34,824 nucleotides of DNA from Thermoleophilia bacterium (GTDB taxonomy: Bacteria; Actinomycetota; Thermoleophilia; Gaiellales; Gaiellaceae): contig JAICLU010000007.1 of assembly GCA_025925195.1 (NCBI GenBank), positions 1-34,824 on the forward strand. Reading direction: 5' to 3'. Both the position numbers and the translations under genes were made by a program. The notes under the pieces were generated by a model. It had not been told where the DNA came from. It did not search any database and worked only from the letters and a program-made list of their open reading frames with translations. Positions 4,127-12,961 of the stretch are shown piece after piece. Within the stretch, counting starts at the first letter, position 1. Each line of letters opens with the position of its first letter.

Positions 4127-5314
4127 TCAGAGCGCGGCGTCGACCGCTGCGGCGACGAAGAGCAGCGCGAGATAGAGCAGCGAGTAGTGGAACGCGAACG
4201 CGGCCCGGCGGCGGTCGCCGTCGCGAAGCCGCAGCGCGAGGACGAGAAAGATGCCGCCGAGCCCAAGCGCGAAGACGAGATAGACGAGGCCGAACGCGCC
4301 GGCCGCATACGGCACGACCGTGAAGGCGACGAGCGCGATCGTGTACCAGACGATCCGCCGCACGGTCGCCGGGACGCCGGCGGCAACCGGCAGCATCGGA
4401 ACGTTCGCCTTCGCGTAGTGCTCGCGGAGCAGAAGGGCGAGCGCCCAGAAGTGGGGCGGCGTCCAGAGGAAGACGATCACGAAGAGCCACAGCGCCGGCA
4501 GGCCGAGGTTGCCGGTCGCCGCTGCGTAGCCGACGAGCGGCGGCACCGCGCCTGCGGCGCCTCCGAGCACGATGTTCTGCGGGCCGCGCCGCTTCAGGTA
4601 CCCGGTATAGACGAGCACGTAGAACGCGTTGCCGACGAGTGCGAGCACCGCCGTCAGCACGTTGACGCTCGACGCGAGCAGCGTGAACGAGCAGGCCGAC
4701 AGCGCGAGCCCGAACTCGAGGGCGCGCGACGGCGCGAGCCGTCCGGTCGCGACCGGACGTCCTTCCGTGCGGGATCCCATGAGGCGGTCGATGTCGCGGT
4801 CGAGCAGATGGTTGAGCGCGCTCGCGCCACCGCAGGCAAGTGCGAGGCCGACCATCGCGAGCACGAACTGCGCGCTGCCGGGCCAGCCGCGCGCGCCGAC
4901 GACCATGCCGCACGCGCCCGTGACGAGCAACAGGCTCATGATGCGCGGCTTCGTCAGCGTCAGGTAGTCGCGGGCGCTGCCGCGTTCGAGCGGGGCGCCG
5001 CGCAGGCAGCGCGCCGCAGCCACGCAGGTCGCCGCGAGCGCGAGCGATGCGAGCACGAGGTGCAGTTGCCGCGTCGTGACGGCGGCCGAGGTGCAGAAGA
5101 GCGCAAGCGCCGCACACGCCGGCGGCAGCAGTCTGCGGTGCGACAGGAAGGCGGCGAGCACGAGCGCCAGCAGGGGTGGCAGCGCCGCGGCCGCGACGAC
5201 GTCGTGCGTCGAGCGGCTGCCGGTCGCGCCGCTGACGACCGCGATCAGGCAGCCGGCGGCGGCGGCGAGCGCGGTCAGGCGCAGAGCGAGGCCGCCGCTC
5301 GCACCGGTTCTCAC
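4127..5314 (-). CDS. ctaB: Protoheme IX farnesyltransferase (heme O synthase) with an N-terminal membrane extension
   Basis: CtaB adds a farnesyl group to heme b to make heme O, the precursor of heme A for the oxidase encoded upstream. The UbiA-family core begins near residue 115 (LTLTKPRIMSLLLVTG) and has the Asp-rich prenyl-binding motif NHLLDRDIDRLM (168-179) plus the second loop YTGYLKRRGPQNI. The protein is 395 residues, about 100 longer than usual. The extra N-terminus has about three or four hydrophobic segments, including GATGSRSTHD and a late RQLHLVLASL segment. These recall heme A synthase (CtaA) loops, but it is at most half of a CtaA. The GTG start at 5314 overlaps the SCO stop (GTGA), supporting the long form. 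Confidence 0.93.
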   Translation of the reverse strand: MRTGASGGLALRLTALAAAAGCLIAVVSGATGSRSTHDVVAAAALPPLLALVLAAFLSHRRLLPPACAALALFCTSAAVTTRQLHLVLASLALAATCVAAARCLRGAPLERGSARDYLTLTKPRIMSLLLVTGACGMVVGARGWPGSAQFVLAMVGLALACGGASALNHLLDRDIDRLMGSRTEGRPVATGRLAPSRALEFGLALSACSFTLLASSVNVLTAVLALVGNAFYVLVYTGYLKRRGPQNIVLGGAAGAVPPLVGYAAATGNLGLPALWLFVIVFLWTPPHFWALALLLREHYAKANVPMLPVAAGVPATVRRIVWYTIALVAFTVVPYAAGAFGLVYLVFALGLGGIFLVLALRLRDGDRRRAAFAFHYSLLYLALLFVAAAVDAAL

Positions 5315-5991
5315 GCGGGGTCCCGCGCGAGCCGCGCCAGGTCAGACTGGACGAACGACTGCAAGAACGGGAACAGGTACGCAGTCCGCTCGGAGCCCCT
5401 CCGGTCGATCAGGTAGAGCGCGAGGCTGTGCACGATGTCGTTCGTCGTCGGCTCGACCTCGACCCCGTAGCGCTTCCACACGGCGGCGAGCTGCGCGCGG
5501 TGCGGCGCGTTCAGCCAGTGCAGCTGCCAGGGGCCCGACAGCTTCCATTTCGCGAGGGCGTGCGAGATCGAGCCCGGAGTGTCGCCGCGCGGGTCGACGC
5601 TGACCACGAGGACGACGGGGCGCCGCGCGGCCGGGAGCCGTCGCATGATCGAGCCGAGCTCACGGCCGACGATCGGGCATGCGGTCGTGCACTGCGAGTC
5701 GAGGAAGACGAGCAGCACCGGCTTTCCGCGCAGCCCTGCCAGCGAGATGGATGCGCCGTGTTGATCGCGGAGCGCGAACGGCGGAGCGGGGCGGGCGCCC
5801 GGCGCCCACGACGCCTGCCCATGGAACTCGGGCAGCGCCGGCTTCACGAGGGTGGTCGCGCCGCGCTCGTGCAGGACGCGGACGAGCGCACCGGCGCCGA
5901 TACCGGCCAGCGCGACCGCTGCGAGCACGAGCCCGACCTGCGCTCCGGCGGGCCGGCCGCGGCCGGGCGCGGCTGCGCCGACCTCGGTCAT
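5311..5991 (-). CDS. SCO1/SenC-family copper chaperone for the CuA site
   Basis: SCO proteins are membrane-anchored thioredoxin-fold chaperones that deliver copper to, and reduce, the CuA site of oxidase subunit II. In this 226-residue protein, an N-terminal anchor (about 19-38) is followed by the thioredoxin fold. The copper ligands are all present: C101 and C105 in CTTAC, and H188 in NDIVHSL. FALRDQHG and SVDPRGDTPG are also typical. The ATG at 5991 is fixed by an ATGA overlap with the 47-residue gene upstream; a longer in-frame start at 6042 would lie inside that gene. Its place between the oxidase structural genes and ctaB fits its role. Confidence 0.93.
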   Translation of the reverse strand: MTEVGAAAPGRGRPAGAQVGLVLAAVALAGIGAGALVRVLHERGATTLVKPALPEFHGQASWAPGARPAPPFALRDQHGASISLAGLRGKPVLLVFLDSQCTTACPIVGRELGSIMRRLPAARRPVVLVVSVDPRGDTPGSISHALAKWKLSGPWQLHWLNAPHRAQLAAVWKRYGVEVEPTTNDIVHSLALYLIDRRGSERTAYLFPFLQSFVQSDLARLARDPA

Positions 5992-6131
5992 TGCACCTTG
6001 CCGCTGCGCGCGCCGGGCGTGCGCCGTCGTAGCAGGATCCACCAGTAGATGCCGACGGCGATCAGCGCGCCGACGGGGATGACGAGGGACAGGATCGCGC
6101 CGGTGAGGAAGTGCGTTGCGAGCAGGATCAT
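5988..6131 (-). CDS. 47-residue single-span membrane peptide in the oxidase operon
   Basis: This small gene has a GAGAGG-type ribosome binding site just before the ATG at 6131, sits 2 bp after the ctaG stop, and overlaps the SCO start as ATGA, so it is tightly built into the operon. The product (MILLATHFLTGAILSLVIPV...) has one long hydrophobic helix (about 2-35, ending YWWILLRRR) and a basic cytoplasmic tail RRRTPGARSGKVQ. Small hydrophobic subunits are known in bacterial heme-copper oxidases, so a structural or assembly role is plausible. I cannot match it to a named subunit. Confidence 0.75.
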   Translation of the reverse strand: MILLATHFLTGAILSLVIPVGALIAVGIYWWILLRRRTPGARSGKVQ

Positions 6132-6992: not shown

Positions 6993-7673
6993 TCAGATCA
7001 GGTAGAGGACGACCCAGCTGAGGACGCCGAGCCCCGCCACGAAGCCCCAGTAGAAGGACAGGGACTCGAGGCCCGGCCGCACGAGCGACAGCGGATCGCT
7101 GATGTCGTGGCCCGGCCGTCCCGGGTCGCCGGACGCCTCGCCGGGAGCCGGGGAGCCGGTCGCGTGGCTCCGGTAGCGCAGCGAGGTCGCGACGATGTTC
7201 TCCAGCCAGAAGAGCGTGCCGATCGTGAAGAGCACGTTGAACGCCGTCCAGCCGAAGAAGACGCTCGCGTAGCCGCCGTCGGCCGGGCCGAACCCGATCG
7301 CCGTCCATTCGATCACCTGCACCACGACCCCGGCGATTCCGAGCGCGAGCGCGACCACTCCCGTGCGGCGCCACTGCGCGCGGCGCCCCGCACGGTGCTG
7401 CAGCAGTCCGATCCGCACGAGCAATGCGCTCAGGACGATCAGCGCCATGACGATCGTGCCGTAGGCGAGCGACGGGTCGATGTGCTTCGGCCGCCACTTG
7501 TCCGCATTGTTCAACGAGCGGAGGTAGAAGTACGCGAAGACGAACGCGAGGAAGAAGAACGCCGTCGCGCTGGCGAACAGATGCGCTCCGGAGTTCAGGT
7601 TGCGGCCGAGCAGCTCCGGCGGCTCGCCCTCGACGATCTCGTAGTCGGTCGCATGGCTCACCAGTTCGCTCAT
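6993..7673 (-). CDS. ctaE: Cytochrome c oxidase subunit III
   Basis: Subunit III is a structural membrane subunit of the aa3-type oxidase. The 226-residue protein shows about five hydrophobic spans with family-like stretches: LFASATAFFFLAFVFAYFYLR near residue 32, VQVIEWTAIGFGP, GWTAFNVLFTIGTLFWLE, and a C-terminal SFYWGFVAGLGVLSWVVLYLI. A hydrophilic Gly/Pro/Asp insert (about 172-195) separates the last two spans. Its ATG at 7673 overlaps the ctaD stop as ATGA, indicating translational coupling with subunit I. Confidence 0.92.
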   Translation of the reverse strand: MSELVSHATDYEIVEGEPPELLGRNLNSGAHLFASATAFFFLAFVFAYFYLRSLNNADKWRPKHIDPSLAYGTIVMALIVLSALLVRIGLLQHRAGRRAQWRRTGVVALALGIAGVVVQVIEWTAIGFGPADGGYASVFFGWTAFNVLFTIGTLFWLENIVATSLRYRSHATGSPAPGEASGDPGRPGHDISDPLSLVRPGLESLSFYWGFVAGLGVLSWVVLYLI

Positions 7674-9562
7674 GACATGCCTCCTACGCCGGTCGGGGCG
7701 GGTACGGCGACCGGGCCGCGCGCCTCGCCGTAGTCGTACGGATCACTCGTGATGTGTGGAATCCGGTCGAAGTTGTGCACCGGAACGGGCGACGGCAGCT
7801 GCCACTCGAGCGAGCGCGAGCCCCAGGGATTCGCCGGCGCCGGCACCTTCGCGAACACGAGCGACCAGACGAAGTTCACGAGGAACAGCAGCAGCGAGAA
7901 CCCGAGCACGAACGCCGAGATCGACACCCAGTCGTTCAGGAACTGCAGCGTGTGCGCGTACGTCACCGCGCGGCGCGGCTGCCCGAGGAACCCGATCGCG
8001 AACAACGGCCCGAACGTCGAGTTGAACGAGATGAACATCAGCCAGAAGTGCACCTTCCCGAGGCGCTCGTTCAGCATGTAGCCCGTCATCTTCGGCACCC
8101 AGTAGTAGATCGCGGCGAAGAAGGTGAACACGAGCCCGCCCATGATCGTGTAGTGGAAGTGGGCCATCGAGAAGAAGCTGCCGTGCGTCGTCACGTCGCT
8201 CGGAACGTCGGAGAGGAAGACGCCCGACAGCCCGCCGATCAGGAAGTTGAAGAACCAGGCGAGGCAGAACAGCATCGGCACCGGGAAGCGCAGGTTGCCG
8301 CGCCAGAGCGTCATCAGACCGCAGAGGAACGTGAAGCCGGTCGGAATCGAGATCAGCTCGGTCGACAGCATGTAGAACGGCCGCAGGTCGCTGTTGATGC
8401 CGCTGACGAAGATGTGGTGCTGCCAGACGAGCCAGCTCAGCAGCGTGACGCCGAGCAAGCCCGCGACCGAGAGGCGGTAGCCCCAGAGCGGCTTGCGCGC
8501 GAACACCGGCAGGAGCTCGAGCACGATCGCGAATCCGGGCAGCGCGAGGATGTAGACCTCCGGGTGCCCGAAGATCCAGAACAGGTTCTCGTACAGGTAT
8601 GGACTGCCGCCGCCGGTCGGCAGGAAGAAGGTCGTCTGCGCCGTCCGGTCGAGCATCGCCATGCCGAGCACCGCGACGAGCACCGGGGCTGCGAGCACCA
8701 TGAGGATCGCGGTCGACAGCACGCCCCAGCAGAAGATCGGCAGGCGCGACCACGTCAACCCCGGCGCGCGCATGGTCACGATCGTCGCGATCATGTTCAG
8801 GCCGAGCAGGCACATCGAGATCCCGACGAGCGCGAAGAACACGATGTACGCGTCCATGCCGGCGTTCGCCTGATCGTTGAGCGGCTCGTAGCCCGTCCAC
8901 CCCGTGGGGAAGCCGCCGAAGAAGATCGTCGTCGTCAGGATCGCGCCTGCCGACATCAGCAGCCAGAAGGTCAGCGCCTCGATGCGCGGGAAGGCCATCC
9001 GGCGCGCGCCGATCATCAGCGGCACGAGGTAGTTCGCAAACGGCCCGAGGATGCCGCTCGTGAACATCCCCATCATCATCGTGCCGTGCATTCCGACGAG
9101 CGTCAGGTACTGGCCGGGCGGGAAGATATGGCTCGTCGGGCTGAGCAGCTCCATTCGGATGAACATCGCGTTCAGCCCGCCGACGAAGAAGAAGAGACCG
9201 ATCCCCCACAGGTACTGGATGCCGACGACCTTGTGGTCGGTGCAGAGGCCGAAGTAACGGCCCGCGCCCTCCGTCTCCTTCTCGCGGAGCGACGGCGGAT
9301 AGCCGCGCATGCGCGACCACGGGTAGACGCCGAAGCCCAACCCGATCAGGAAGCCGAGCAGGCCGATGATGTAGCCGCAGAAGATCGCGACGTCGTTCTG
9401 GTCGATGTCGCCGAAGTAGTCGATGCTCGCGCCGGCGACCTGGTGGCCGATGAACCAGCCGAGATACCAGCCGCCGACGCCGAGGACGACCGCCGTCAGC
9501 AGGTTGAACCCGATCAGGCGGCGCCAGAGCGGTGGAGTGGTCTCGATCGCGACTGCGCTCAC
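7670..9562 (-). CDS. ctaD: Cytochrome c oxidase subunit I (aa3-type heme-copper oxidase)
   Basis: The catalytic subunit reduces O2 to water at a heme a3-CuB centre and pumps protons. The GTG start at 9562 has an AGGAG site (reverse strand of 9571-9575), giving 630 residues; further upstream the frame only reads antisense of ctaC. Ligands are present: MHGTMMM (heme a His), GHPEVYI (CuB His, Glu and the cross-linked Tyr of A1-type enzymes), WQHHIFVSG (CuB His pair) and MAHFHYTIMGG (heme a3 and heme a His). It has an extra N-terminal pair of spans (about 15-85) before the core. The D-channel entrance motif reads IGARRMAFPRIEA, with Arg where the conserved Asp usually sits (codon 8999-9001). It is coupled to ctaE by ATGA. 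Confidence 0.96.
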   Translation of the reverse strand: MSAVAIETTPPLWRRLIGFNLLTAVVLGVGGWYLGWFIGHQVAGASIDYFGDIDQNDVAIFCGYIIGLLGFLIGLGFGVYPWSRMRGYPPSLREKETEGAGRYFGLCTDHKVVGIQYLWGIGLFFFVGGLNAMFIRMELLSPTSHIFPPGQYLTLVGMHGTMMMGMFTSGILGPFANYLVPLMIGARRMAFPRIEALTFWLLMSAGAILTTTIFFGGFPTGWTGYEPLNDQANAGMDAYIVFFALVGISMCLLGLNMIATIVTMRAPGLTWSRLPIFCWGVLSTAILMVLAAPVLVAVLGMAMLDRTAQTTFFLPTGGGSPYLYENLFWIFGHPEVYILALPGFAIVLELLPVFARKPLWGYRLSVAGLLGVTLLSWLVWQHHIFVSGINSDLRPFYMLSTELISIPTGFTFLCGLMTLWRGNLRFPVPMLFCLAWFFNFLIGGLSGVFLSDVPSDVTTHGSFFSMAHFHYTIMGGLVFTFFAAIYYWVPKMTGYMLNERLGKVHFWLMFISFNSTFGPLFAIGFLGQPRRAVTYAHTLQFLNDWVSISAFVLGFSLLLFLVNFVWSLVFAKVPAPANPWGSRSLEWQLPSPVPVHNFDRIPHITSDPYDYGEARGPVAVPAPTGVGGMS

Positions 9563-9578
9563 GCAGGGCTCCTCTCGG

Positions 9579-10448
9579 TCAGCCCGCGCGTTGCGACGGG
9601 TCGGGCAGATACGTGGTCGAGTAGGGCGGCAGATACTTCGAGACGGGCGCGAAGTACGACTGCTGCTGCTTGATCCAGCTCGTGAACCGGCCGGACGCCA
9701 CGACGTGGCCGGTGTCGAACATGTAGCCGTGCCACAGGCCGCAGAGTTCTGCACAGCGGATGTCGAACTGCATCGGGTCCTTCGTGTGCACGTAGACGAT
9801 GTTGTCGACGCCCGGGTTCGCGTCGGCCTTGACGCCGAGCCCGTACGCCCAGAACGAATGGATCGCGTCGAGTGACGTCACGTGCAGCCGCACGAGCGTC
9901 CCCGCCGGCAGCACGAGGTGCGGTGTCTCGATGCCGCCGTACGTGGGGTAGCGATACGTGAACTCCCACTGCTGCCCGATCACCTGGACGTCGAGCGCCT
10001 TCTGGTAGCCGGCCGGCTGGAACGCCGCCGTCGGGCCCTGGCCGCCGCCGGCGCCCGACTGCACGAGCTCGTAGCTGCCGAACCCGGCCAGGAAGAGGAC
10101 GATCGCCGACGTGATGACCATCCACAGCGTCTGGATCCGCGCGTTGCCACGGATCGGCGGCCCGTCCTCGAGTGCCCCGACCGTGCCGCGGTTCCGGAAC
10201 GTCCAGAGGGCGTAGCCGAGGAACATCACGACGAACAGGCCGGGCGGCGTCATGATCGCGAGCAGCCACGAGTTGTCGAAGACCTGCTCGTGCGCCTGCG
10301 CAGACCCGTTCCCGGGCGGCAGGTGGTCGCCGAGGAAGATCGCGACGAGCGGCGTCGCGATGACGCTCGCGACGATCCAGGCGACGAGGAAGCGCTTGCC
10401 GTGGTCGGTCGCGGGCGCGGGCGTTGTGGATGCGGCGGCCTCGGTCAT
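9579..10448 (-). CDS. ctaC: Cytochrome c oxidase subunit II with complete CuA site
   Basis: Subunit II accepts electrons at its exposed CuA centre and passes them to subunit I. The 289-residue protein has hydrophobic spans at about 21-39, 60-82 and 107-127, then a cupredoxin domain. All CuA ligands are seen: H197, C232, E234, C236, H240 and M243 (RCAELCGLWHGYM). The aromatic electron-entry patch GQQWEFTYRYP is also present. There is no fused cytochrome c domain, so it needs a separate donor or complex III partner, neither of which is in this window. The ATG at 10448 overlaps the stop of the upstream cupredoxin gene by 1 nt (TGATG). Confidence 0.95.
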   Translation of the reverse strand: MTEAAASTTPAPATDHGKRFLVAWIVASVIATPLVAIFLGDHLPPGNGSAQAHEQVFDNSWLLAIMTPPGLFVVMFLGYALWTFRNRGTVGALEDGPPIRGNARIQTLWMVITSAIVLFLAGFGSYELVQSGAGGGQGPTAAFQPAGYQKALDVQVIGQQWEFTYRYPTYGGIETPHLVLPAGTLVRLHVTSLDAIHSFWAYGLGVKADANPGVDNIVYVHTKDPMQFDIRCAELCGLWHGYMFDTGHVVASGRFTSWIKQQQSYFAPVSKYLPPYSTTYLPDPSQRAG

Positions 10449-11134
10449 CAGACGACGTTCAGGAAGCCGTCCATGTAGCCGACGCTCTGCATCGGCCCGC
10501 CGAAGCCGTACTCGAAGCCGGCGGCGCACGGGACGAAGCACTGCCAGCGGTAGCGACCGGGCTTGCCGGTGCGGAACGTGAAGGTGATCGTGCGGTGCGC
10601 CATCGAGAGCGCGCACGGTGCGTAGCCGCAGGCCTTGGGCGAGTCTTCGCCGGCTTCGCTGACCGGTGCGACCGGGACGAGGATCCCCATTTCAGGGACC
10701 GCGAACGTGTGCGACGGCTGGTCGGGCGGGAACGCGTCGATCGGCTTGCCGTCGACGACCTCCTTGCCGACGAGGCCCTGCGGCTGGCCGAGGAAGGGAT
10801 TGCGAAGCCCGCTCGCGCCGTCGAAGTTGTAGATCGTCACGTGGACGAGCGCGTGGGCGGGCAGCGTGTAGATCGTGCTGCGCTCCCACTGGCCGTTCGG
10901 CCGGCGCACGAGGTACGAGACCCAGTCGGGGTGCGGCGCCTTCGTCGGGCCGACCGCGGCCACCGTCTGCAGGACGAGGTTGACGCTCGTCTTGCCGCTC
11001 GTCGTCTGCGCAGCGGGGCGGAACGGGGTCGTGTTCCCGACGAGGTAGCCCGAGATGTAGAAGCCGATCAGGATGCCCGCGACGGCGACGACCGCCGCCA
11101 CTCCTGCCACCTTCGCCGCCAGGCCTCCCCGCAT
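10448..11134 (-). CDS. Membrane-anchored CuA-like cupredoxin protein heading the oxidase operon
   Basis: The 228-residue product has one N-terminal anchor (about 7-32) and an extracytoplasmic beta-rich domain resembling oxidase subunit II. It contains SHTFAVPEMG (H142), placed like the first CuA histidine, and GRYRWQCFVPC, whose C199-x3-C203 has the same spacing as the CuA cysteines; a GPM methionine follows at 215. The second CuA histidine is absent (Phe at the +4 position), so the copper site, if any, is atypical. A further cysteine pair (C169, C174) could form a disulfide. It is coupled to ctaC by TGATG. The ATG at 11134 lacks a good SD; an in-frame TTG at 11176 would add 14 residues. A subunit or copper-handling factor of the oxidase is likely. 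Confidence 0.8.
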   Translation of the reverse strand: MRGGLAAKVAGVAAVVAVAGILIGFYISGYLVGNTTPFRPAAQTTSGKTSVNLVLQTVAAVGPTKAPHPDWVSYLVRRPNGQWERSTIYTLPAHALVHVTIYNFDGASGLRNPFLGQPQGLVGKEVVDGKPIDAFPPDQPSHTFAVPEMGILVPVAPVSEAGEDSPKACGYAPCALSMAHRTITFTFRTGKPGRYRWQCFVPCAAGFEYGFGGPMQSVGYMDGFLNVV

Positions 11135-11244: not shown

Positions 11245-11904
11245 ATGAACATCCTGCTGATCGAGGACGAGGCTCGGATCCTGTCGTTCCTCGCGCGCGG
11301 CCTGGAAGCCGAGGGCTACTCGGTCGAGAGCGCCGGCGACGGGCGGCTCGGGCTCGCCCTCGCGGTCGCGCGCACCTGGGACCTCGTCGTGCTCGATCTG
11401 CTGCTGCCGTCCATGAGCGGCCTCGACGTCCTCGCCGAGCTCCACCGCCGGCGTCCCGACCTGCCCGTGCTCATCCTCTCGGCGAGGTCGGACCTGCAGA
11501 CGAAGCTGCGCGGGTTCGAGCTCGGCGCGTCGGACTACGTCCAGAAGCCGGTCGCGCTCGACGAGCTCCTCGCACGGGTGCGCGTCCAGCTGCGCCGCCG
11601 CGAGCCGGTCGACGGCGGACTCATCTGCTGCGGGCGCCTCGAGCTCGACGTCGAGCGCCGGCAGGCCCGCATCGGCGCCGCCGTCTGCGAGCTCTCCGAC
11701 CGCGAGTTCCGACTGCTCCGCCATCTCGTCGATCACGCCGGAAAGGTGATCAGCCGGGAACGGCTGCTCGCCGACGTCTGGGGGTACACGTTCGACCCCG
11801 GCTCGAACGTCGTCGACGTGTGCATCCGGCGGCTCCGGAAGAAGCTCGGGCCCGACGCTCCGATCGAGACCGTCCGCCATGCGGGTTACCGGCTGGCTGC
11901 GTAG
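11245..11904 (+). CDS. OmpR/PhoB-family response regulator
   Basis: The 219-residue DNA-binding regulator has a receiver domain (1-120) with acidic residues E7-D8, phospho-acceptor D51 in VVLDLLLP, the switch residue S79 and conserved K101 in VQKPV. It also has a C-terminal winged helix (about 127-218) with typical features: SDREFRLLRHLVDHAGKVIS, LLADVWGY and VVDVCIRRLRKKLG. The ATG at 11245 begins directly at the first strand MNILLIEDE; longer starts would add an unrelated tail encoded by the divergent control region. The kinase gene begins inside its last codons (26-bp overlap). The phased repeats at 11177-11214 just upstream suggest autoregulation. Confidence 0.94.
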   Translation: MNILLIEDEARILSFLARGLEAEGYSVESAGDGRLGLALAVARTWDLVVLDLLLPSMSGLDVLAELHRRRPDLPVLILSARSDLQTKLRGFELGASDYVQKPVALDELLARVRVQLRRREPVDGGLICCGRLELDVERRQARIGAAVCELSDREFRLLRHLVDHAGKVISRERLLADVWGYTFDPGSNVVDVCIRRLRKKLGPDAPIETVRHAGYRLAA

Positions 11905-12961
11905 ATACTCGGTCGAGGTCGGCTGGTCGGTGTTCGCTGCGGCGAACGTCGCCGCGATGATCGCGGACCCGAGCTGGGAGACGATCCCGTTCCACTTCGT
12001 CTGGATCAGCCTGACGCTCGTCTACGGGTTCCGCGTCTGGTCGAACCGGACGACCACGATCGTGCTCGCCGTCGTCGTCGTCTCGACCGGCACGTCGATC
12101 TTCGCCGACGCGTTCGAGGGCATCCAGCTGTGGGGCGAGCTGTTCGAGGTGCCGCTGATGTCGGCGATGTTCCTCGCGATGGTGTGGCACGCGCGACGCC
12201 GGCAGATCGCGGTGCACGAGGCGGAGGCGCTCGTCGAGCAGCAGGAGCGGTTCCTGCACGACGTGTCGCACGAGCTGCGGACGCCGGTCGCGATCGCGCG
12301 TGGCCACCTCGACCTCCTGCGTCCGCGCGGCGGCGAGCTGCCGCCGGAGGTCGCGATCGCGATCGACGAGCTCGGCCGGATGGACAGGATCATCTCGCGC
12401 CTGCTGCTGCTCGCGAAGGCGGAGCAGCCGTCCTTCCTCGCATTCGCGCCGCTCGACGCGGCGGCGTTCCTCGAGGACGTCTTTCTCCGCTGGAGCGAGG
12501 TCGCGCCGCGCGTGTGGCGGCTCGGCCGGCTCGCGCAGGGCTCCGTCCTCGCCGACGAGGAGGCGTTGCGCGACGCGCTCGACGCGCTGCTCGAGAACGC
12601 CGTCAAGTACACCGACCGTGGCGACCGGATCGAGGTGCGCTCGTACGTCCTCGACTTCGGGCTCGTGATCGAGGTGATCGACACCGGCGTCGGCATTCCG
12701 GCCGAAGCCGTCGACCGGATCTTCGAGCGCTTCGCCCGCGGCGACGCCGCACGGACGCGGTCGACCGGCGGCGTCGGGCTCGGGCTCGCGATCGTCGACG
12801 CGGTGGCGCGGGCGCACGGCGGGGCCTGCTCCGTGCAGTCGAAGGGCCGCGGGGCGACGTTCTCGCTGAGGCTGCCGCGCTACACGGCGTCAGGGAACGG
12901 GGCGAGCACCGGGACGAGCGCGGGGGATCCGGCGATGCTGCCGGATCCCGTGCTCGAGTAG
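11879..12961 (+). CDS. Sensor histidine kinase partner of the OmpR-family regulator
   Basis: This 360-residue membrane kinase should phosphorylate the preceding regulator. The N-terminus has about four hydrophobic spans (roughly 13-30, 38-53, 60-76, 88-104) with very short loops, so it has no sizeable extracellular sensor domain; a signal inside or near the membrane is likely. The dimerisation/phosphotransfer helix carries H131 in FLHDVSHELRTP. The ATPase domain shows the N box LLENAVKYTD, G1 DTGVGIP, the F box IFERFARG and G2 GVGLGLAIV. The C-terminal 30 residues are low-complexity. No HAMP domain is evident. It converges on the small membrane gene ending at 12978. Confidence 0.93.
   Translation: MRVTGWLRRYSVEVGWSVFAAANVAAMIADPSWETIPFHFVWISLTLVYGFRVWSNRTTTIVLAVVVVSTGTSIFADAFEGIQLWGELFEVPLMSAMFLAMVWHARRRQIAVHEAEALVEQQERFLHDVSHELRTPVAIARGHLDLLRPRGGELPPEVAIAIDELGRMDRIISRLLLLAKAEQPSFLAFAPLDAAAFLEDVFLRWSEVAPRVWRLGRLAQGSVLADEEALRDALDALLENAVKYTDRGDRIEVRSYVLDFGLVIEVIDTGVGIPAEAVDRIFERFARGDAARTRSTGGVGLGLAIVDAVARAHGGACSVQSKGRGATFSLRLPRYTASGNGASTGTSAGDPAMLPDPVLE
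12924..12949 (+). terminator. Hairpin in the 3' end of the kinase gene (possible terminator)
   Basis: GGGATCCGGC (12924-12933) pairs perfectly with GCCGGATCCC (12940-12949) around GATGCT. It lies within the last 40 bp of the kinase gene, before the convergent small gene. There is no T-tract, so termination is a guess. Confidence 0.35.

What the first reader, a model, noticed from the sequence alone, without database searches (positions are those of the whole stretch)
10448..11134. Atypical CuA-like cupredoxin as first gene of the oxidase operon
Seen: H142 in SHTFAVPEMG and C199-x3-C203 have the arrangement of a CuA site, but the second histidine is replaced (Phe at +4) and the methionine is displaced to 215; an additional Cys pair (C169/C174) is present. 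The gene is fused by TGATG coupling to the normal subunit II. It could be an extra electron-entry subunit, a copper relay to CuA, or a duplicated subunit II that lost its site.
Basis: partly seen in the sequence, partly recalled or inferred. Interest (0 to 1): 0.6.

Follow-up and report, generated by a model that had tools for sequence, protein, structure and literature searches.

The report
Cupredoxin with unusual oxidase copper site
The first gene of this respiratory-oxidase operon encodes a membrane-anchored copper-type protein of an unnamed family, found mostly beside one kind of oxidase, whose probable metal site (one His, two Cys, two Met) matches no standard copper site and may be how electrons enter that oxidase.

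Summary
The gene is real and is not a decayed subunit II. It encodes an N-terminal membrane helix plus a cupredoxin domain (AlphaFold pLDDT 89; nearest solved folds: rusticyanin, and the CuA domains of ba3 oxidase and N2O reductase). No Pfam or NCBIfam model names it. A genome scan found 244 relatives; all 80 examined stand directly upstream of a subunit II gene with an intact CuA motif wherever complete. All 97 members aligned, down to 23% identity, carry the His and then C-x2-P-C-x(4 or 10-12)-M-x5-M-x-G. The second His of CuA and type-1 sites is missing. C169/C174 is a secondary pair, lost together in two members. In 61 related genomes this protein and its own subunit II clade are both present (19) or both absent (42). 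That clade lacks the fused cytochrome c domain that 28 of 31 other subunit IIs in the genus have. Best reading: a dedicated electron-entry cupredoxin, analogous to AcoP of Acidithiobacillus, with a new ligand set. Copper delivery is the main rival. Metal binding is untested.

The parts
10448..11134 (-). cup: membrane-anchored cupredoxin, first gene of the oxidase operon (228 aa)
   Evidence: 244 relatives
11042..11125 (-). N-terminal transmembrane helix, residues 4-31; all 80 homologues have a hydrophobic N-terminal segment
10709..10711 (-). His142 codon, candidate metal ligand, invariant
10613..10630 (-). C169-GYAP-C174: second Cys pair, present in 79 of 81 close members, both lost together in 2; absent from the divergent branch
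10472..10540 (-). ligand loop C199-FVP-C203-x11-M215-x5-M221: C199, P202, C203, M215 and M221 invariant
9579..10448 (-). coxB/ctaC, subunit II, intact CuA motif, no cytochrome c domain; its start overlaps the stop of cup (TGATG)
7670..9691 (-). coxA/ctaD, subunit I (open frame given; the true start lies inside it)
   Evidence: PF00115 E=4.7e-128
6993..7673 (-). coxC/ctaE, subunit III
   Evidence: PF00510
6134..6982 (-). ctaG, oxidase assembly factor
   Evidence: PF09678 E=2.5e-52
5311..6042 (-). Sco1/SenC-like copper protein
   Evidence: PF02630
4127..5314 (-). ctaB-like UbiA prenyltransferase (haem O synthase)
   Evidence: PF01040 E=1.3e-57

Best explanation
The gene encodes a dedicated, membrane-anchored cupredoxin subunit of one clade of aa3-type cytochrome c oxidase, found mainly in Thermoleophilia and Acidimicrobiia. 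Shown: one N-terminal helix, a predicted cupredoxin fold, strict co-occurrence and operon linkage with one subunit II clade, and an invariant set His142, Cys199, Cys203, Met215, Met221. Inferred: the domain sits on the outer face beside subunit II, binds copper through those residues, takes electrons from a periplasmic or bc1-bound donor, and passes them to CuA, doing the job that a fused cytochrome c domain does in the caa3-type oxidases of the same genomes. AcoP of Acidithiobacillus ferrooxidans is placed in a similar way. Whether the site holds one or two coppers is not known.
For: Cupredoxin fold, with rusticyanin, ba3-CuA and N2OR-CuA as nearest solved structures. Five potential ligands invariant in 97 members down to 23% identity. 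80 of 80 loci have coxB directly downstream, and the CuA ligand motif is intact in the 78 loci where coxB is complete. In 61 related genomes the cupredoxin and its coxB clade are both present (19) or both absent (42). In the same genus 0 of 10 coxB of this clade have an attached cytochrome c domain, against 28 of 31 other coxB; the window genome's two other CoxB proteins carry CxxCH. No CxxCH in any of the 80 partner CoxB. AcoP precedent: a membrane-anchored cupredoxin bound to cytochrome oxidase, encoded in the same cluster, and reducible through cytochrome c4 (PMC4059628, PMC5982212).
Against: No metal, redox or binding data exist. The loop 203-212 is the least certain part of the model (pLDDT below 50 in places), so site geometry cannot be judged. 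A Cys2Met2His set is soft and would also suit Cu(I) carriage. The window genome has several c-type cytochromes, so an entry protein is not strictly required. The genomes compared are related, so the counts are not independent events.
Confidence: 0.5

Rival explanations
1. Copper relay: a membrane-bound Cu(I) chaperone specific to this oxidase, using the CxxxC pair plus His and two Met to hand copper to CuA of the adjacent subunit II.
For: C-x3-C plus a distant His is the ligand pattern of Sco proteins (established knowledge), the Met-containing loop suits Cu(I), and the assembly genes sco and ctaG share the operon.
Against: sco and ctaG are already in the operon. The genome's other CoxB proteins have intact CuA motifs, yet the protein pairs only with one coxB clade, so CuA assembly in general does not need it.
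Confidence: 0.25
2. Accessory stabilising subunit: the metal site matters for folding or protection of the oxidase (for example at low pH), not for electron transfer.
For: AcoP was proposed to maintain optimal oxidase activity at acidic pH (PMC4059628). One cultured member, Acidithrix ferrooxidans (L087), is an acidophilic iron oxidiser (PMC5143472).
Against: Members also occur outside oxidase operons with the same five residues kept, which suggests that the metal site itself is the selected feature.
Confidence: 0.15
3. Degenerate duplicate of subunit II without a metal site.
For: A profile comparison places His142, Cys199 and Cys203 on the CuA His, Cys and Cys of its own subunit II, a hint of remote common descent (probability 36%). 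The second CuA His is absent.
Against: Candidate ligands are invariant in 97 sequences while mean column identity is 28-41%. The protein matches neither COX2 nor COX2_TM.
Confidence: 0.03

Closest known systems
AcoP of Acidithiobacillus ferrooxidans (green cupredoxin bound to cytochrome c oxidase)
   Same: Single-domain cupredoxin, N-terminal membrane helix, gene in the cytochrome oxidase cluster, an extra region not seen in other cupredoxins, unusually long loop between Cys and Met (PMC4059628).
   Different: AcoP has the classical set H85, C159-x6-H166-x4-M171. The family here has no loop His and has two Cys and two Met.
CuA domain of oxidase subunit II and of N2O reductase
   Same: Cupredoxin fold, His plus C-x3-C, and a weak profile match in ligand register.
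   Different: The motif Hx34Cx3Cx3Hx2M (as given in PMC6189053) is not met: no second His, and Met positions differ.
Rusticyanin, auracyanin and sulfocyanin (type-1 blue copper)
   Same: Best fold match, weak sequence matches, and M221 in the axial Met position.
   Different: The second His ligand is absent, a second Cys and a second Met are invariant, and the Cys-to-Met loop is about 12 residues longer.
PmoD/AmoD
   Same: A membrane-anchored cupredoxin tied to one copper-enzyme operon that forms a CuA site with a non-canonical Cys/Met/His set (PMC6189053).
   Different: PmoD builds its site between two monomers, from another part of the fold, and has a C-terminal helix.
Sco1/SenC
   Same: CxxxC plus a distant His.
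   Different: Sco has a thioredoxin fold; this is a cupredoxin, and a separate Sco gene is in the same operon.

Membership tests
Cupredoxin superfamily | Greek-key beta-sandwich cupredoxin fold | tested here: met
   AlphaFold pLDDT 89 and Foldseek matches to rusticyanin and CuA domains, E down to 9.9e-5; a divergent member passes the Pfam Cupredoxin_1 cut-off
CuA site (COX2 / N2OR) | H-x(n)-C-x3-C-x3-H-x2-M ligand motif | tested here: not met
   first His and C-x3-C present; position C203+4 is F, W, Y, T and others; no loop His in 94 of 97 members
Oxidase subunit II (Pfam COX2) | match to PF00116/PF02790 | tested here: not met
   no family at E<=1; the neighbouring gene matches PF00116 at 1.2e-14
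Type-1 blue copper proteins | two His, one Cys and an axial Met | tested here: not met
   His142, C199 and M221 present; second His absent, while a second Cys (C203) is invariant
Rusticyanin (TIGR03095) | score above curated cut-off | tested here: not met
   the window protein has no hit; 11 of 81 members match weakly, best E=0.0026
AcoP | N-terminal membrane helix and gene in the cytochrome oxidase cluster | tested here: met
AcoP | ligands H85, C159-x6-H166-x4-M171 | tested here: not met
   no conserved His in the loop (AcoP ligands from PMC4059628)
AcoP | sequence homology over the whole domain | not tested
Sco1/SenC | thioredoxin fold | tested here: not met
   cupredoxin fold; no PF02630 match
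PCuAC | H(M)x10Mx21HxM motif (as given in PMC9145763) | tested here: not met
   not present in the 228 aa sequence
All copper sites above | copper actually bound | not testable with these tools
   needs purified protein

The most novel reading that the evidence does not exclude
The family carries a new natural copper centre: a CuA-like two-copper site bridged by Cys199 and Cys203, capped by His142 and Met221 on one side and by Met215 in place of the second CuA His on the other. It would form an extra purple-copper relay in series with CuA in these oxidases.
Probability: 0.25. Interest if true: 0.8.

Novelty: new variant of a known kind. Interest (0 to 1): 0.58.

Why it matters
Cupredoxins tied to terminal oxidases are known (AcoP, sulfocyanin), but the characterised ones use the classical His2-Cys-Met set. 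Here a family without a Pfam or NCBIfam name, found in many soil and acidophilic Actinobacteria including the iron oxidiser Acidithrix ferrooxidans, keeps a different set of five residues without exception. If it binds copper, it is a natural test of what CuA chemistry requires, and a candidate for the electron route into the oxidases of these bacteria.

Tried and rejected
Pseudo-subunit II: rejected by invariance. Replacement for missing cytochromes c: rejected for this genome, which has several PF00034 proteins. Relatives in viral contigs: none. PDB sequence search with the single protein gave nothing; profiles gave only weak blue-copper and nitrite-reductase matches. Pfam and NCBIfam gave no usable name. 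The deeper alignment did not improve the ligand loop in the model. Literature searches found no paper holding 'cupredoxin' together with Thermoleophilia and cytochrome c oxidase, or with Solirubrobacter. Subscription journals are not held, and a 2020 review cited for membrane-bound oxidase cupredoxins ('Cup', Degli Esposti 2020, cited in PMC8239418) could not be read, so the gene may have been noted before.

Full report
The observation. The gene at 10448-11134 on the minus strand encodes 228 residues with H142, C169, C174, C199, C203, M215 and M221. Its stop overlaps the start of subunit II as TGATG. Downstream follow coxB, coxA, coxC, ctaG, sco and a ctaB-like UbiA gene on the same strand. 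No Pfam or NCBIfam model matches the protein.

Relatives. A scan of one genome for each of 84,980 species gave 244 relatives; the 80 held are mostly from Thermoleophilia (Solirubrobacterales and related) and Acidimicrobiia, including the cultured Acidithrix ferrooxidans. In an even draw of the phylum, 20 of 391 good genomes have it. No relatives were found in viral contigs.

Linkage. All 80 loci have coxB immediately downstream, mostly overlapping or within a few bases. The CuA ligand motif C-x3-C-x3-H-x2-M of that coxB is intact in all 78 complete copies; L086 has CSSLC instead of CxExC, and the copies in L068 and L088 end before the motif. In 61 related genomes, 19 have the cupredoxin, and the same 19 have a coxB scoring 271 bits or more; the other 42 have only distant coxB copies at 111 bits or less, or none. 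In the same genus, 0 of 10 partner coxB but 28 of 31 other coxB have a cytochrome c domain directly attached (from the tables). The window genome's two other CoxB proteins were read directly and contain CxxCH after CuA. None of the 80 partner CoxB proteins has CxxCH.

The site. In 81 close members, 17 columns are invariant, among them H142, C199, C203, M215 and M221. In 37 members reaching down to 23% identity, only seven columns are invariant: H142, C199, P202, C203, M215, M221 and G223. All 97 sequences obey C-x2-P-C-x(4 or 10-12)-M-x5-M-x-G. The divergent members include copies outside oxidase operons: four tandem cupredoxins in one genome and three cupredoxin genes in another. C169/C174 is lost as a pair in L086 and L088 and is absent from the divergent branch, so it is likely a disulfide in the majority (inference).

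Fold. AlphaFold with 81 sequences gives pLDDT 89.3 and a membrane helix 4-31 followed by a beta-sandwich. Foldseek finds rusticyanin first, then N2O reductase and the ba3 CuA domain. TM-scores are modest, plausibly because of the helix and the long insert at about 105-140. Residues 203-212 are poorly defined, so no geometry is claimed.

Descent. A profile comparison with its own subunit II aligns H142, C199 and C203 with the CuA His and two Cys, at probability 36% and E 0.0004 for a single comparison. The tail M221-x-G-x-L-x-V resembles the axial Met context of blue-copper proteins (established knowledge). The protein therefore shares traits with both classes and cannot be assigned to either.

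Interpretation. A lost site is excluded. The conserved set, the membrane anchor, the strict pairing with a subunit II clade lacking a cytochrome c domain, and the AcoP precedent (PMC4059628, PMC5982212) make an electron-entry subunit the best reading. A dedicated copper relay is the main rival, because two Cys, two Met and one His also suit Cu(I). PmoD shows that cupredoxins can build CuA-type centres with other ligand sets (PMC6189053), which makes the two-copper reading possible but not shown.

Limits. Genomes are mostly metagenome bins and are related to one another, so counts are not independent. Only 80 of 244 relatives were held. Only open-access literature was searched.

Noticed in passing
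L125: 5624-8220 (genome G279, contig C15): Four cupredoxins of this superfamily in tandem, outside an oxidase operon and near a sulfate permease; all keep the His, CxxPC and M-x5-M pattern.
   Followed up: partly
L132: 3107-3796 and 3806-4513: Two adjacent cupredoxin genes with different N-termini but almost identical C-terminal regions of about 140 residues, a sign of recent duplication or gene conversion. Their loop between the second Cys and the first Met is only 4 residues.
   Followed up: partly
window genome G000: C135:3964-5193 and C53:4127-5173: The window genome has two further subunit II genes, both with fused cytochrome c domains; the one on C53 lies near a diheme QcrC-like cytochrome.
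   Followed up: partly
11245-12961: Divergently transcribed two-component system (OmpR-type regulator and histidine kinase) directly upstream of the oxidase operon; possible regulator of it.
   Followed up: no
7670-9691: Subunit I has roughly 100 extra N-terminal residues with hydrophobic segments before the COX1 domain.
   Followed up: no
L021, L026, L033, L059, L094: Bins labelled Gemmatimonadaceae, Burkholderiales, Acidobacteriota, Bacillota and Acidobacteria carry this actinobacterial-type operon; labels or binning are doubtful.
   Followed up: no
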